This document shows, in pieces, positions 17,834-23,574 of a stretch of DNA of 64,000 nt (its first letter is position 1; each line of letters begins with the position of its first letter). Source of the DNA: an uncultured Modestobacter sp. (GTDB lineage Bacteria > Actinomycetota > Actinomycetes > Mycobacteriales > Geodermatophilaceae); the NCBI RefSeq assembly GCF_947486615.1, contig NZ_CANKUD010000005.1, forward strand, positions 62,001 through 126,000, written 5' to 3'. The position numbers were made by a program, and so were the translations under genes. The notes beneath the pieces were generated by a model. The model saw only the letters and a list, made by a program, of their open reading frames with translations. It was not told where the DNA came from and made no database searches.

Positions 17834-20800
17834 GTGAAGACGTGGCTCGACGCGTGGCCGGTGTTCCGGCAGCTCACTGGATCCGATCCGCTCGGCCGGG
17901 GCCATGCTGCCCGCAGCAAGGCCACCGAGCAGACGGTCAGCCGCACGGCGACCGCCGACCGGGTGGCGAAGTCGGTCTGCCCCTACTGCGCCGTCGGCTG
18001 CGGCCAGCGGGTGTTCGTCAAGGACGAGCAGATCGTGCAGATCGAGGGCGACCCCGACTCCCCGATCAGCCGCGGCCGGCTGTGCCCCAAGGGCAGCGCC
18101 AGCAAGCAGCTGGTCACCAGCCCGACCCGGGTCACCACGGTCAAGTACCGCCGTCCCTACGCGACGGACTGGGAGGACCTGGACCTGGACACGGCGATGG
18201 AGATGATCGCCGACCGGGTGCTGGCCGCCCGGGAGAAGGGCTGGCAGGACGAGGACGCCGGCAAGCGCGTCAACCGCACCATGGGCGTGGCCAGCCTGGG
18301 CGGGGCGACGCTGGACAACGAAGAGAACTACCTGATGAAGAAGCTGTACAGCGCCATGGGCGCGGTACAGATCGAGAACCAGGCCCGCATATAGCACTCG
18401 TCGACGGTCCCCGGTCTGGGGACCTCGTTCGGCCGTGGTGGCGCGACCAACTTCCTGGAAGACCTGGCGAACTCCGACTGCATCGTCATCGAGGGTTCGA
18501 ACATGGCCGAGTGCCATCCGGTCGGGTTCCAGTGGGTGTCCGAGGCGAAGGCCAAGGGCGCCAAGATCATCCACATCGACCCGCGGTTCACCCGCACCAG
18601 TGCGATCGCCGACCTGCACGTCCCGATCCGGATGGGCACCGACATCGCCTTCCTGGGCGGGCTGATCAAGTACGTGCTGGACAACGACCTGTACTTCAAG
18701 GAGTACGTGGTCGCCTACACGAACGCCGCCGCCCTGGTCGGTGAGGACTTCGTCGACGCCGAGGACCTCGACGGCCTCTTCTCCGGCTTCGACCCCGAGA
18801 CCGGCCAGTACGACGAGTCGAGCTGGCAGTACGAGGGCGCCGAGCAGGTCGCCGCGGCGGGGCAGCGTTCCCCGGGGCAGCCGGGTTACTCGGGCACGTA
18901 CGAGGCCACGACGGAGGGCGACGAGGAGGAGACCGGCGAGGCCGACGACCCGCAGCGGGCCGCCGAGCAGGACGCCAGCGACGAGGACCCGTCGGTGAAG
19001 GCATCCGACCGGGGCCAGGCCGCCGGCAGCGGTGGGCCGTCGATCCCGGGCAAGCCCAAGCGCGACGAGACCCTGCAGCACCCGCGCACGGTGTTCCAGG
19101 TGCTCAAGCGGCACTTCGCCCGCTACACCCCGGAGATGGTCGCCGAGGTCACCGGCATCGAGCCCGAGGTCTTCGAGCAGGTCGCGAAGTGGGTGACGTC
19201 GAACAGCAACCGGGAGCGCACCACCGCCTGGGTGTACTCGGTGGGCTGGACGCAGCACAGCGTCGGCGCGCAGTACATCCGGACGGCGTCGATCCTGCAG
19301 GCGCTGCTGGGCAACATGGGCCGCCCCGGCGGCGGGATCATGGCGCTGCGCGGGCACGCCTCGATCCAGGGCTCGACCGACGTCCCGACGTTGTTCAACA
19401 TCCTCCCCGGCTACCTGCCGATGCCGCACGCACTGCAGCACCACACGCTGGCCGACTACGTCGCCTCCAGCGCGGGCAAGGCCGGGTTCTGGGGCAACAT
19501 GGACGCCTACATGACCAGCCTGCTCAAGGCCTGGTTCGGTGACGCCGCGCAGCCGGAGAACGACTTCGGGTTCGACTGGCTGCCGAAGATCAACGGCGAC
19601 CACAGCTCCTACCGCACGATCGCGGACATGATCGCCGGCAAGGTGCACGGCTACTTCCTGGTCGGGGAGAACCCCTCGGTCGGTCACCCCAACGGCAAGA
19701 TGAACCGGTTCGGGCTGGCGAACCTGGACTGGCTCGTCGTCCGCGACCTGCAGATGATCGAGTCGGCGACCTTCTGGAAGGAGGGCCCGGAGATCGAGTC
19801 GGGGGAGATGGCCCCCGAGACGATCGGCACCGAGGTCTTCTTCATGCCCGCCGCCACGCACGTGGAGAAGGAGGGCACCTTCACCCAGACGCAGCGGCTG
19901 CTGCAGTGGCGGGAGAAGGCGGTCGAGCCGCCGATGGACGCCCGCAGCGACCTGTGGTTCTTCTTCCACCTGGGCCGTCTGCTGCGCGAGCGGCTGGCCG
20001 GGTCGACCGACCCGAAGGACCAGCCGCTGCTCAACCTGACCTGGGACTACCCGACGATCGGGGAGACCCAGGACCCGGACGCCGAGGCGGTGCTGCGCGA
20101 GATCAACGGCGTCGGCCCCGACGGCAAGGCGCTGAGCTCCTACACCGAGATGAAGGCCGACGGGTCGACCAGCGGTGGCTGCTGGATCTACACCGGCGTC
20201 TACGCCGACGAGGTGAACCAGGCCGCCCGGCGCAAGTCGCACCGTGAGCAGGGCCCGGTCGCCTCCGAGTGGGGCTGGGCGTGGCCGGCCAACCGGCGGA
20301 TGCTCTACAACCGCGCCTCGGCCGACCCCGAGGGCAAGCCGTGGAGCGAGCGCAAGCGGTACGTGTGGTGGGACGAGGAGTCCGGTCGCTGGACCGGCGT
20401 CGACACCCCGGACTTCGAGGCCACCAAGCGGCCGGACTACCAGCCGCCGGAGGGGGCCAAGGCGCAGGACGCGATCTCCGGCGTCGACCCGTTCATCATG
20501 CAGGGCGACGGGAAGGCCTGGCTGTACGCGCCGGCCGGGCTGACCGACGGCCCGATGCCGACGCACTACGAGCCGGCCGAGTCGGTGGTGGAGAACGCCC
20601 TCTACGGGACGCAGTCCAACCCGACGATCGAGCGCATCGCCGGTCCGTGGAACCGGGAGAACCCCTCGATGAGCGAGGTCTTCCCGTTCCAGGTGACCAC
20701 CTACCGGCTGACCGAGCACCACACGGCCGGCGGGATGAGCCGCACGCTGCCCTACCTGTCGGAGCTCCAGCCGGAGTTCTTCGTGGAGGTCAGCCCGGAG

Positions 20801-21208
20801 CTGGCGGAGCTGCGCGGCCTGACCAACGGCGAGTTCGCCACCCTGGTGAGTGCCCGGTCGGCGATCGAGGCGAAGGTGCTGGTCACCGAGCGGATCCGGC
20901 CGATCAAGCTGCGCAGCGGCCAGGTCGTGCACCAGATCGGCATGCCCTACCACTGGTCGTACGCGGGCCTGTCCACCGGCGACAACGCCAACGACCTGCT
21001 GGGCATCGTGCTCGACGCGAACACCCACATCCAGGAGGACAAGGTCAGCACCGCCGACATCATCCCGGGGCGCCGGCCGCGCGGGCCGGAGCTGCTGGAC
21101 TTCGTCGAGGGCTACCGGATGCGGGCCGGCGTGAAGTCAGGCCGGGTCGGCATCAACGGCCGCGAGCCCGACGAGGACCCGAGCAAGATGGAAGAAGCGG
21201 GCGCGTGA
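17834..21208 (+). CDS. fdhA: Formate dehydrogenase catalytic subunit, selenoprotein with UAG-encoded selenocysteine
   Basis: Molybdopterin oxidoreductase of FdnG/FdoG type that oxidises formate to CO2. Reading through the in-frame TAG at 18392-18394 gives 1,124 residues. An N-terminal [4Fe-4S] site is formed by C49, C52, C56 and C84 (CPYCAVGC ... RLCPKG). Residue 187, after ENQARI and before HSSTVPGLGTSFGRGGATN, is the selenocysteine position of the family. Downstream are MAECHPVGFQW, HIDPRFTRTS and the C-terminal dinucleotide-binding domain. GTG 17834 gives VKTWLDAWPVFRQLTG, as in actinobacterial homologues. An acidic low-complexity stretch (about residues 336-418) is longer than I expect. 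No Tat signal is evident. It is followed by fdhB after 22 bases. Confidence 0.92.
18392..18394 (+). other. Recoded TAG codon, predicted selenocysteine
   Basis: The codon at the family's selenocysteine/cysteine position is TAG, in frame between ENQARI and HSSTV. Both sides are conserved without interruption, and the next true stop is TGA at 21206-21208. In most bacteria this codon is TGA. TAG is also used as an ordinary stop in the window (cysQ ends in TAG at 58780-58782), so reading must depend on the adjacent hairpin. Confidence 0.9.
18402..18427 (+). promoter_or_regulatory. Bacterial SECIS hairpin
   Basis: A perfect 7-bp stem (GGTCCCC 18406-18412 with GGGGACC 18418-18424) carries a GGTCT loop (18413-18417). 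A 3-bp extension (CGA 18402-18404 with TCG 18425-18427) lies below a single bulged C at 18405. The GGTCT loop starts 18 bases after the TAG. From memory, E. coli fdhF has a GGUCU loop 18 bases after its UGA and a bulged base in its stem, the features recognised by SelB. The hairpin lies inside coding sequence and is read as TVPGLGT. Confidence 0.9.
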
Positions 21209-21230: not shown

Positions 21231-22298
21231 ATGACCGCGGTCAGCTCGGCGAGCCCGGGGCTCGAGGGCCCGGACGCCAAGAACCGGCTGTTCGGGCCGC
21301 TGCCCGACGTGCAGGGCGAGGCCGGGTACGCCGAGGACCACCCGGCCCGGGTCGGGTTCTTCACCGACACCTCGGTGTGCATCGGCTGCAAGGCGTGCGA
21401 GGTGGCCTGCAAGGAGTGGAACACGCTCCCGATGGACGACTCGCACGGCAAGCGGGACGCCATGGGCATGTCCGGGATGTCCTACGACAACACCGGCATG
21501 CTGGGCGCCAACTCCTGGCGGCACGTGGCCTTCATCGAGCAGAGCCGTGCGGTCGACCTGCCGATGCCGTCGTTCGGCCGTCCGGGTGACGACCGCAAGG
21601 ACACCGGCCTCCCGGTGAACCCGGTCGCCCCGCAGGCCGACGGCCCGCTGAACGCGCAGACCAGCGTGCTCAACGCCGAGGCGCTGACCGAGTACGACCC
21701 GCAGACCGGGCAGAGCGGCGGTGACAAGCAGATCCGCTGGCTGATGTCCTCCGACGTCTGCAAGCACTGCACGCACGCCGGCTGCCTGGACGTCTGCCCG
21801 ACCGGTGCGCTGTTCCGCACCGAGTTCGGCACCGTCGTGGTGCAGGGCGACATCTGCAACGGCTGTGGCTACTGCGTGCCGGCCTGCCCCTACGGCGTCA
21901 TCGACAAGCGCGAGGACGACGGCCGGGTCTTCAAGTGCACGATGTGCTACGACCGGCTCACCGACGGGCTGCAGCCGGCGTGCGCCACGGCGTGCCCGAC
22001 CCAGTCGATCCAGTTCGGTGACCTCGACGAGCTGCAGGCCCGGGCCGACGCCCGGCTGGCCACGCTGAAGGAGCAGGGCGTGGAGAGCGCCCGGCTCTAC
22101 GGCCGCGACGAGAACGACGGCGTCGGCGGCAACTCGGCGTTCTTCCTGCTGCTCGACGAGCCCGAGGTCTACGGCCTGCCGCCGGACCCGATCGTCACCA
22201 CCCGCGACCTGCCCGCGATGTGGAAGGCCGCGGCCACCGGTGCGGCGATGATCGTCGGCATCATCGGCTCCGCCTTCCTGGGCCGGAGGCGGTCATGA
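21231..22298 (+). CDS. fdhB: Formate dehydrogenase iron-sulfur subunit
   Basis: This 355-residue ferredoxin-type subunit carries electrons from FdhA to the membrane. Four Cys clusters are visible: CIGCKACEVACK, CKHCTHAGCLDVCP, CNGCGYCVPACP and CTMCYDRL with later CATACP, enough for four [4Fe-4S] centres. A single hydrophobic helix near the end (GAAMIVGIIGSAFLG) followed by RRRS is a membrane anchor like that of FdnH/FdoH. ATG 21231 follows fdhA by 22 bases. After its stop, two palindromes precede nrfD. Confidence 0.92.
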   Translation: MTAVSSASPGLEGPDAKNRLFGPLPDVQGEAGYAEDHPARVGFFTDTSVCIGCKACEVACKEWNTLPMDDSHGKRDAMGMSGMSYDNTGMLGANSWRHVAFIEQSRAVDLPMPSFGRPGDDRKDTGLPVNPVAPQADGPLNAQTSVLNAEALTEYDPQTGQSGGDKQIRWLMSSDVCKHCTHAGCLDVCPTGALFRTEFGTVVVQGDICNGCGYCVPACPYGVIDKREDDGRVFKCTMCYDRLTDGLQPACATACPTQSIQFGDLDELQARADARLATLKEQGVESARLYGRDENDGVGGNSAFFLLLDEPEVYGLPPDPIVTTRDLPAMWKAAATGAAMIVGIIGSAFLGRRRS

Positions 22299-22389: not shown

Positions 22390-23574
22390 GTGAGCGAGCA
22401 GTCGACGGGCAACGAGCCTGCCGGCAAGGCCCCGGTGACGCCGGGTGCCGGCTGGCACCGCGCCGGCGGTGAGGACCTCACCCGGCCGCGGCGCAAGCGC
22501 CGCAAGGGCGGCGGTGGCTGGGGCGGGGGCAACCGCGAGGCCGCGATGGTGCCGGAGGCGGAGTTCAGCTCCTACTACGGCCGGCAGATCATCAAGACGC
22601 CGACCTGGAAGAACCCCGAGGTCCCGATCTACTTCTTCCTCGGTGGTGCGGCGGGCACGTCGTCGGTGATCGCGGCGCTGGCCGAGTTCACCGACCGGCC
22701 GAAGCTGGCGCGCAACGCCGAGTACGTGGCCGGGGCCGGGGCGCTGGCCTCGGTGGTGCTGCTGATCGACGACCTGGGCCGCCCGGAGCGCTTCCTGCAC
22801 ATGCTGCGGGTGTTCAAGGTGACCTCGCCGCTGTCGGTCGGCTCCTACATCCTGTCGCCGTTCAGCGCGCTGACGTCGGCCGCTGCGGCCTTCCGGCTGC
22901 TGGACCTGAAGCCGGTCATGGGGCTGGGCACCAAGGTGCTGCCGTTCCTGCCGAAGATCGCGGGCTCGATCCCGGTGCTGCGCAAGGCATCCGCCGTGGG
23001 TGCGGCCGCCTTCGGTGGGCCGATGGCGACCTACACGGCGGTGCTGATCGCCAACACCGCGGTGCCGTCGTGGCACGCGCCCTACGACGAGCTGCCGTTC
23101 GTGTTCGCGGGCTCGGCGATGGCCGCCGGTGGCGGCATCACCATGGCGCTGACCCCGGTCGACGAGGCCGGCCCGGCGCGCAAGGCCGCGCTGGCTGGGG
23201 TCGCCCTGGAGCTGGCGGCGATGCACAAGGTGGAGAACGGCCACGGCATCGTCAGCGAGCCCTACCACCTGGGCAAGGCCGGGAAGCTGATGAAGGCGGC
23301 GAAGGCGGCCACCGTCAGCGGCGCCGCGATCACGGCGCTGCTCGGCCGGAAGCGCGCCGGGGCGGTCGCCGGTGGCGTGCTGCTGGCCGCCGGCTCGCTG
23401 TTCACCCGCATGGGCGTCTTCGAGGCGGGCATGGCCAGCGCCAAGGACCCGAAGTACACGGTCATCCCGCAGCGCGAGCGGATCGCCGCCCGCGAGGCGG
23501 GCCGGGGTGCCACGACCGACGGCACCGAGGGCAACGCCGTCGACGCGGGCGAGGCCAGCACCATCACCCGCTGA
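22390..23574 (+). CDS. nrfD: NrfD/PsrC-family membrane subunit of formate dehydrogenase
   Basis: This 394-residue polytopic protein is expected to pass electrons from FdhB to the quinone pool. A cytoplasmic N-terminus (about 70 residues) contains a basic RPRRKRRK run and Gly-rich GGGGWGGG. Membrane helices begin at VPIYFFLGGAAGTSSVIAAL, and DDLGRPERFLHMLRVFKVTSPLSVGS is the NrfD signature. TYTAVLIANTAVPSWHAPYDELPF and further helices follow, then a hydrophilic tail. GTG 22390 has GGGGAGGGG upstream. Unlike E. coli FdnI it is not a cytochrome b. A strong terminator follows. Confidence 0.9.
   Translation: MSEQSTGNEPAGKAPVTPGAGWHRAGGEDLTRPRRKRRKGGGGWGGGNREAAMVPEAEFSSYYGRQIIKTPTWKNPEVPIYFFLGGAAGTSSVIAALAEFTDRPKLARNAEYVAGAGALASVVLLIDDLGRPERFLHMLRVFKVTSPLSVGSYILSPFSALTSAAAAFRLLDLKPVMGLGTKVLPFLPKIAGSIPVLRKASAVGAAAFGGPMATYTAVLIANTAVPSWHAPYDELPFVFAGSAMAAGGGITMALTPVDEAGPARKAALAGVALELAAMHKVENGHGIVSEPYHLGKAGKLMKAAKAATVSGAAITALLGRKRAGAVAGGVLLAAGSLFTRMGVFEAGMASAKDPKYTVIPQRERIAAREAGRGATTDGTEGNAVDAGEASTITR

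What the first reader, a model, noticed from the sequence alone, without database searches (positions are those of the whole stretch)
18392..18427. Selenocysteine encoded by UAG in formate dehydrogenase
Seen directly: the fdhA frame is interrupted once, by TAG, exactly where the formate dehydrogenase family has selenocysteine. Conserved protein sequence continues on both sides, in frame, to a TGA 2.8 kb later. A hairpin with a GGTCT loop and a bulged base starts 8 bases after the TAG; the loop begins 18 bases after it, the spacing I recall for E. coli fdhF. Established: bacterial SelB reads UGA with such a hairpin. From memory, UAG (and UAA) selenocysteine codons have been reported for some bacteria, including Geodermatophilaceae, so the principle is described but rare. 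Standard annotation would split or discard this gene.
Basis: partly seen in the sequence, partly recalled or inferred. Interest (0 to 1): 0.95.

Follow-up and report, generated by a model that had tools for sequence, protein, structure and literature searches.

The report
UAG likely read as selenocysteine
In this bacterium the formate dehydrogenase gene has a UAG stop codon exactly where related enzymes carry selenocysteine, and the genome holds a selenocysteine tRNA with the matching CUA anticodon plus the helper genes, so the codon is likely read as selenocysteine, a rule already reported for this bacterial family.

Summary
The fdhA frame (17834-21208, +) is interrupted once, by TAG at 18392-18394, which aligns with the selenocysteine position of a solved formate dehydrogenase. 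Eleven bases later lies a hairpin (18406-18424) whose GGTCT loop sits at the same distance as in E. coli fdhF. In the window's family 118 of 125 fdhA matches contain one TAG; the other 7 do not span the site. A class-wide sample outside the family shows only TGA or no stop. The hairpin covaries at synonymous sites. Best explanation: SelB delivers Sec-tRNA(CUA) at UAG. This rule is published for Geodermatophilaceae, so this is a new member of a known kind. Two additions: three genera of the same family keep a UCA tRNA, and two of them have formate dehydrogenase-like genes with UGA. One genome (G059) carries both a CUA tRNA-Sec and, on a transposon-bearing island, a UCA tRNA-Sec beside a UGA-interrupted AhpD-like gene. 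Selenium insertion itself could not be tested.

The parts
17834..21208 (+). fdhA, formate dehydrogenase alpha subunit, 1124 residues when TAG is read through (start codon GTG inferred)
   Evidence: NCBIfam NF041513 formate_DH_Act 1897.6 bits, cut-off 1400; Pfam Molybdop_Fe4S4, Molybdopterin, Molydop_binding
18392..18394 (+). in-frame TAG, residue 187, predicted selenocysteine codon
   Evidence: aligns with the residue printed X of PDB 1h0h_A in QARI-X-HS, which I take to be its selenocysteine
18406..18424 (+). bSECIS-like hairpin GGTCCCC-GGTCT-GGGGACC, 11 bases after the TAG
   Evidence: fold; covariation; same loop offset as E. coli fdhF
21231..22298 (+). iron-sulfur (beta-like) subunit gene next to fdhA
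   Evidence: Fer4_11 and further 4Fe-4S domains; TIGR01582 FDH-beta 175.2 bits, below its cut-off of 334.7
22390..23574 (+). NrfD-like membrane subunit gene
   Evidence: PF03916 NrfD 55.6 bits, cut-off 25.8; no NCBIfam match

Best explanation
The UAG at codon 187 of this fdhA gene is likely read as selenocysteine by the genome's own selenocysteine tRNA, which has a matching CUA anticodon. Predicted steps: seryl-tRNA synthetase charges the tRNA with serine; SelA, using selenophosphate from SelD, converts it to Sec-tRNA(CUA); SelB binds this tRNA and the hairpin just after the UAG and delivers it to the ribosome in competition with release factor 1. The product would be a 1124-residue, membrane-linked formate dehydrogenase with Sec at its active site. 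Shown here: the codon, its position, the hairpin with covariation, the tRNA with its anticodon, and selA, selB and selD. Not searched for: the synthetase and the release factor. Inferred: charging, delivery, insertion and enzyme activity.
For: Machinery in the same genome: CUA tRNA-Sec at C8:168236-168327, selD, selA, selB (581-aa frame). TAG aligns with the X of PDB 1h0h_A. In the family 102 of 110 tRNA-Sec are CUA, and all 118 fdhA matches that span the site hold one TAG (52 of the 118 read letter by letter). In a 394-genome class sample with 113 matches, TAG appears in 3, all from genomes of this family; 87 have TGA and 23 no stop. The 7-bp stem is paired in 99% of cells in 43 distinct TAG sequences against 43-60% when slid by 1-2 bases; on the 28 distinct 40-base versions the value is 98.5% and 0 of 2000 column shuffles reach it. 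Its fourth pair occurs as C-G, G-U, U-A and G-C, both sides being synonymous third codon positions. Five Cys homologues have lost the stem (60% paired, the same as when slid by one) and the loop.
Against: No protein or RNA data. SelB matches its model only over residues 3-339; the C-terminal part that should bind the hairpin is unmatched. The tRNA shows several non-standard pairs against the Rfam consensus, and ARAGORN labels it tRNA-Pyl. Genome G080 keeps a CUA tRNA, but both its fdhA copies have out-of-frame deletions covering the codon and hairpin. Single-sequence folding is not clearly better than shuffles. Column shuffles ignore relatedness, so 0 of 2000 is not a probability.
Confidence: 0.95

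Rival explanations
1. The TAG is a real stop: fdhA is a pseudogene, or a sequencing error has turned a Cys or TGA codon into TAG.
For: A standard ORF list shows two separate frames. One family genome, G080, does have broken fdhA copies.
Against: One TAG recurs in 98 of 112 family genomes and at this very site in 43 of 43 contigs of the clade, with protein sequence conserved on both sides and high GC at third positions just before and after the TAG (0.96 and 0.93).
Confidence: 0.01
2. UAG is read, but as another residue: pyrrolysine, or serine left unconverted on this tRNA under low selenium.
For: ARAGORN calls the gene tRNA-Pyl. Serine is the precursor on this tRNA (established for SelA pathways).
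Against: The tRNA scores 67.7 bits against tRNA-Sec, cut-off 47. UCA versions of nearly the same tRNA occur in three genera of the family. SelA, SelB and SelD are present. The residue is Cys, or a stop at the Sec site, in the homologues read. pylS was not searched for.
Confidence: 0.03
3. UAG mainly terminates, and the readthrough product is a regulated minor one, so that the cell makes the full enzyme only when selenium is plentiful. This does not exclude the main reading.
For: Sec insertion in competition with a release factor is stated for bacterial UGA-Sec (PMC8124441, passage). A naive gene call of the window gives 42 TGA and 2 TAG ends, one of them fdhA's own, so UAG is a rare but not absent stop.
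Against: Nothing here measures yield; conservation of the whole downstream protein shows that the full product matters.
Confidence: 0.1

Closest known systems
UAG-selenocysteine system of Geodermatophilaceae (Mukai et al. 2016, not held, content recalled; PMC5330540, passages read)
   Same: CUA tRNA-Sec, UAG in formate dehydrogenase, same family
   Different: Nothing in mechanism. The window genome lies in a genus whose members match Modestobacter contigs; the search for papers with both 'selenocysteine' and 'Modestobacter' gave 0.
E. coli fdhF UGA-selenocysteine system
   Same: Stop codon followed by a hairpin with a GGTCT loop at the same offset; SelA, SelB, SelD
   Different: UAG in place of UGA, CUA in place of UCA; perfect 7-bp stem without the bulge that I recall for E. 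coli; a longer, actinobacterial FDH
Pyrrolysine decoding of UAG
   Same: UAG read with a CUA tRNA
   Different: The tRNA here is of the tRNA-Sec family and the residue is a Sec/Cys active site; pylS not searched

Membership tests
Bacterial selenocysteine insertion system, UAG variant | in-frame UAG at a known Sec/Cys active-site position | tested here: met
Bacterial selenocysteine insertion system, UAG variant | tRNA-Sec with CUA anticodon in the same genome | tested here: met
Bacterial selenocysteine insertion system, UAG variant | SelA, SelB and SelD genes | tested here: met
   each over its curated cut-off; the SelB match covers only residues 3-339
Bacterial selenocysteine insertion system, UAG variant | hairpin directly after the codon, conserved as RNA | tested here: met
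   covariation at synonymous sites, lost in five Cys homologues; loop offset as in E. coli fdhF; fold energy alone not significant
Bacterial selenocysteine insertion system, UAG variant | selenium in the protein | not testable with these tools
   needs 75Se labelling or mass spectrometry
Actinobacterial formate dehydrogenase alpha (NF041513) | score over curated cut-off | tested here: met
   1897.6 bits, cut-off 1400
Pyrrolysine system | tRNA of the tRNA-Pyl kind | tested here: not met
   best Rfam family is tRNA-Sec at 67.7 bits; ARAGORN's tRNA-Pyl label probably rests on the anticodon (inference)
Pyrrolysine system | pylS and pylBCD genes | not tested

The most novel reading that the evidence does not exclude
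One member of this family (genome G059, whose fdhA and UGSC gene have UAG) encodes two selenocysteine codons at once: UAG with its CUA tRNA-Sec, and UGA with a second, intact-looking UCA tRNA-Sec on a transposon-bearing island. That tRNA lies about 320 bases from an AhpD-like gene with a CFY[UGA] motif. A single SelB gene would have to serve both. UGA, given up by this lineage, would thus be returning by horizontal transfer, giving a natural two-codon selenocysteine code in one cell.
Probability: 0.5. Interest if true: 0.75.

Novelty: new member of a known kind. Interest (0 to 1): 0.42.

Why it matters
It confirms with whole-genome evidence that most genera of a bacterial family have moved selenocysteine from UGA to UAG. 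An annotation pipeline that expects UGA will cut these formate dehydrogenases in two. The family also contains genera that still use UGA, and one genome that appears to hold both codes, so the question of how a codon meaning is handed over can be tested by comparing close relatives.

Tried and rejected
Pseudogene or sequencing error: rejected by conservation. Pyrrolysine: rejected on tRNA family; pylS not searched. Rfam at the gathering threshold finds nothing in the window. Single-sequence folding does not by itself support either hairpin (window z -1.23; G059 AhpD-like gene z -0.74, 44 of 200 shuffles as good). UGSC proteins: no match in the own genome; of 95 matches in the family 72 contain one TAG and 23 no stop (I did not read where the TAG lies). 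The AhpD-like UGA protein found no relative in viral contigs, and on plasmids only matches under 60% identity (333 records). A first regular expression for tRNAs matched 0 of 110 and was replaced by ARAGORN in the same script. AhpC, reported with UAG in Blastococcus saxobsidens (PMC5330540), was not searched in the own genome. A genome with both UAG and UGA selenocysteine was not found in print by searches (listings only, apart from passages of six papers); Mukai 2016 itself is not held, so this is no proof of absence.

Full report
OBSERVATION. The frame of formate dehydrogenase alpha runs from an inferred GTG start at 17834 to TGA at 21206-21208 and is broken once, by TAG at 18392-18394, codon 187. 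With that codon read through, the protein scores 1897.6 bits against NCBIfam NF041513 (cut-off 1400) and has three molybdopterin-oxidoreductase domains. In the alignment to PDB 1h0h_A, a solved formate dehydrogenase, the TAG falls on a residue printed X within a conserved QARI-X-HS stretch; that X is its selenocysteine is my recall. Downstream genes encode an iron-sulfur subunit (21231-22298) and an NrfD-like membrane subunit (22390-23574).

HAIRPIN. Eleven bases after the TAG is GGTCCCC-GGTCT-GGGGACC (18406-18424). In the E. coli K-12 record, fdhF has GGTCT at exactly the same offset after its TGA. Energy alone does not single the hairpin out (26 of 200 shuffles fold as well), so I used 52 TAG-bearing fdhA segments from the family. 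In 43 distinct sequences the seven pairs form in 99% of cells; sliding one arm by 1 or 2 bases gives 43-60%. On the 28 distinct 40-base versions the observed value is 98.5%, the mean of 2000 column shuffles 87.6%, the highest 92.9%. Shuffles ignore relatedness, so this is not a probability. The fourth pair occurs as C-G (21), G-U (14), U-A (4) and G-C (4); both sides are third codon positions (Val and Gly), so the protein does not demand this. The two fdhA copies of the window genome differ by a C-G to G-C swap at the loop-closing pair, again without a change of protein. The loop codon GGT is present in 51 of 52, while GGT makes up 97 of 930 glycine codons in the flanks. Fifteen TGA relatives pair in 92% of cells, 7 of 15 lacking the outermost pair. 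Five homologues that have a Cys codon pair in 60%, no better than when slid by one, and have lost the loop.

MACHINERY. The window genome (4.70 Mb, 36 contigs, 99.98% complete) has a tRNA-Sec at C8:168236-168327, 67.7 bits (cut-off 47), anticodon CUA. A second hit over the cut-off (49.7 bits, C5) is a serine tRNA by the better-scoring Rfam family and by ARAGORN; two weaker hits are serine tRNAs by ARAGORN. selD lies beside the tRNA (C8:167246-168154), and selA and selB about 8 kb away (C8:176116 onward); in each of the three searches one match is over the cut-off. The genome has a second fdhA at C1:381456-382421, also with TAG. The SelB model matches only residues 3-339 of 581, so the hairpin-binding half was not verified by profile.

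FAMILY CENSUS. Of 112 genomes held for the window's family, 108 have a tRNA-Sec. The four without are 72-82% complete drafts; two of them (G098, G099) still have a TAG fdhA. ARAGORN on all 110 tRNA-Sec gives 102 CUA and 8 UCA. fdhA was found in 101 of 112 genomes, 125 matches: 118 contain one TAG (98 genomes); the other 7 (four in G080, one each in G034, G097, G099) do not span the site. Of the 118, 52 were read directly; the remaining rows rest on the tool's stop count. A scan of a collection with organism names gave 193 relatives, of which the best 80 were kept: the first 43 have TAG, and are named Modestobacter, Geodermatophilus, Blastococcus, Trujillonella or Geodermatophilaceae, except one labelled 'Bacillus sp. 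AZ43' and marked unverified; the other 37, from other actinobacterial genera, have TGA (15), TGC (21) or TGT (1). In a class-wide sample of 394 genomes, 109 have fdhA (113 matches): TAG 3, all from G000 and G023 of this family; TGA 87; none 23, of which I read five, all TGC.

WHERE THE SWITCH HAPPENED. Seven of the eight UCA tRNAs belong to three genera (g6, g7, g8), all draft genomes, placed in the same family. They have no close fdhA. A looser search of nine genomes of these genera finds matches in 5 of 9, in g7 and g8 only: 9 matches, 6 with one TGA and 3 without a stop. I read four of the six (L321, L322, L325, L326): the site is NNIDSCNRT[TGA]HAPSVVGL, and GGTCT follows (its offset, checked on one, is the usual one). 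The other two (L323, L324) were not resolved. A small SelB tree (9 sequences, outgroup G368) puts the two UAG members next to g6 (support 0.948) with g7 and g8 outside, as expected if UGA is ancestral and UAG derived once within the family; nine tips make this a weak test. The CUA tRNA differs from a UCA tRNA at 8 of 96 positions, including two anticodon bases and a T-A to C-G swap of one anticodon-stem pair.

A TWO-CODON GENOME. G059 (genus g4; UAG in fdhA, and one TAG in a UGSC match) has two tRNA-Sec: CUA on C11 and UCA on C17. The UCA gene scores 81.8 bits, the highest of the 110 (alignment). About 320 bases away is a 191-residue AhpD-like frame interrupted by TGA in CFY[TGA]MESH. Five distant family relatives have CxxC there. 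It passes TIGR01926 (112.6, cut-off 81.8) and resembles NF041238 'AhpD_rel_CFYUT' (seleno)protein below its cut-off (51.8 of 175). Of ten database relatives read, four show CFYW or CHYW at this place and six a cysteine; the W may be TGA translated as Trp by the source, which I could not check. CxxU AhpD-like selenoproteins are listed in PMC13188914 (passages read). A 7-base-pair hairpin starts 10 bases after the TGA, not significant by energy. One SelB is over the cut-off in G059; a weaker match on C1 is probably elongation factor Tu (inference). The first 17.5 kb of the contig have GC 0.61-0.73, an ALIL element (the link to IS3-type transposons is recalled) and frames that I read as transposases without a profile search; the rest has GC 0.75-0.77. 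A gene at C17:19113 is 83% identical to one in another family genome, though only 7 of 112 genomes have a match. So contamination is less likely but not excluded, and the contig begins inside a transposase-like frame, where misjoins occur. No other of the 112 genomes has this gene with a stop (six genomes match at E <= 1e-20, the other five without a stop).

COMPARISON AND NOVELTY. PMC5330540 (passages read) reports CUA tRNA-Sec in three Geodermatophilaceae genomes with UAG formate dehydrogenases, UGSC proteins and one AhpC, citing Mukai et al. 2016. I recall from that paper's abstract (not held) that selenium labelling supported UAG selenocysteine in Geodermatophilus and Blastococcus. PMC10778597 and PMC8124441 (passages) also state that some bacteria use UAG. 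The finding is therefore a further member of a known kind. What I did not find in print is the in-family split between UGA and UAG genera and the genome with both tRNAs (searches; only openly licensed papers are held). PMC5330540 does report genomes with two tRNA-Sec genes; the passages that I saw do not say that their anticodons differ.

Noticed in passing
L080 1173-1263 (-) and 1582-2157 (+), genome G059 contig C17: A second tRNA-Sec with UCA anticodon on a transposon-bearing island, next to an AhpD-like gene interrupted by TGA, in a genome whose fdhA and UGSC match have TAG.
   Followed up: partly
L084 and L085 (genome G080, contigs C12 and C4): Both fdhA copies have different out-of-frame deletions that remove the selenocysteine codon and hairpin, while the CUA tRNA-Sec (L032) is kept.
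   Followed up: partly
L321, L322, L325, L326 (genomes G075, G073, G071, G072): Formate dehydrogenase-like genes with TGA at the Sec site and GGTCT downstream, in two genera of the same family that have UCA tRNA-Sec (no tRNA-Sec was detected in G072 itself).
   Followed up: partly
G000:C1:381456-382421 (L094): A second fdhA of the window genome, also with TAG; its hairpin shows a compensating C-G to G-C swap relative to the window copy.
   Followed up: yes
family-wide UGSC genes, for example G059:C67:137879-138379: 72 of 95 UGSC-family matches in the family contain one in-frame TAG, 23 no stop; the window genome has no match.
   Followed up: no
L080 2476-5320 (-): A JAB-domain protease gene (Prok-JAB) beside two frames without Pfam match on the same island, possibly part of a ubiquitin-like defence cluster (guess).
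   Followed up: no
window 1-64000: A naive gene call gives 42 TGA and 2 TAG gene ends and no TAA among 44 frames, so UAG is a rare stop here.
   Followed up: no
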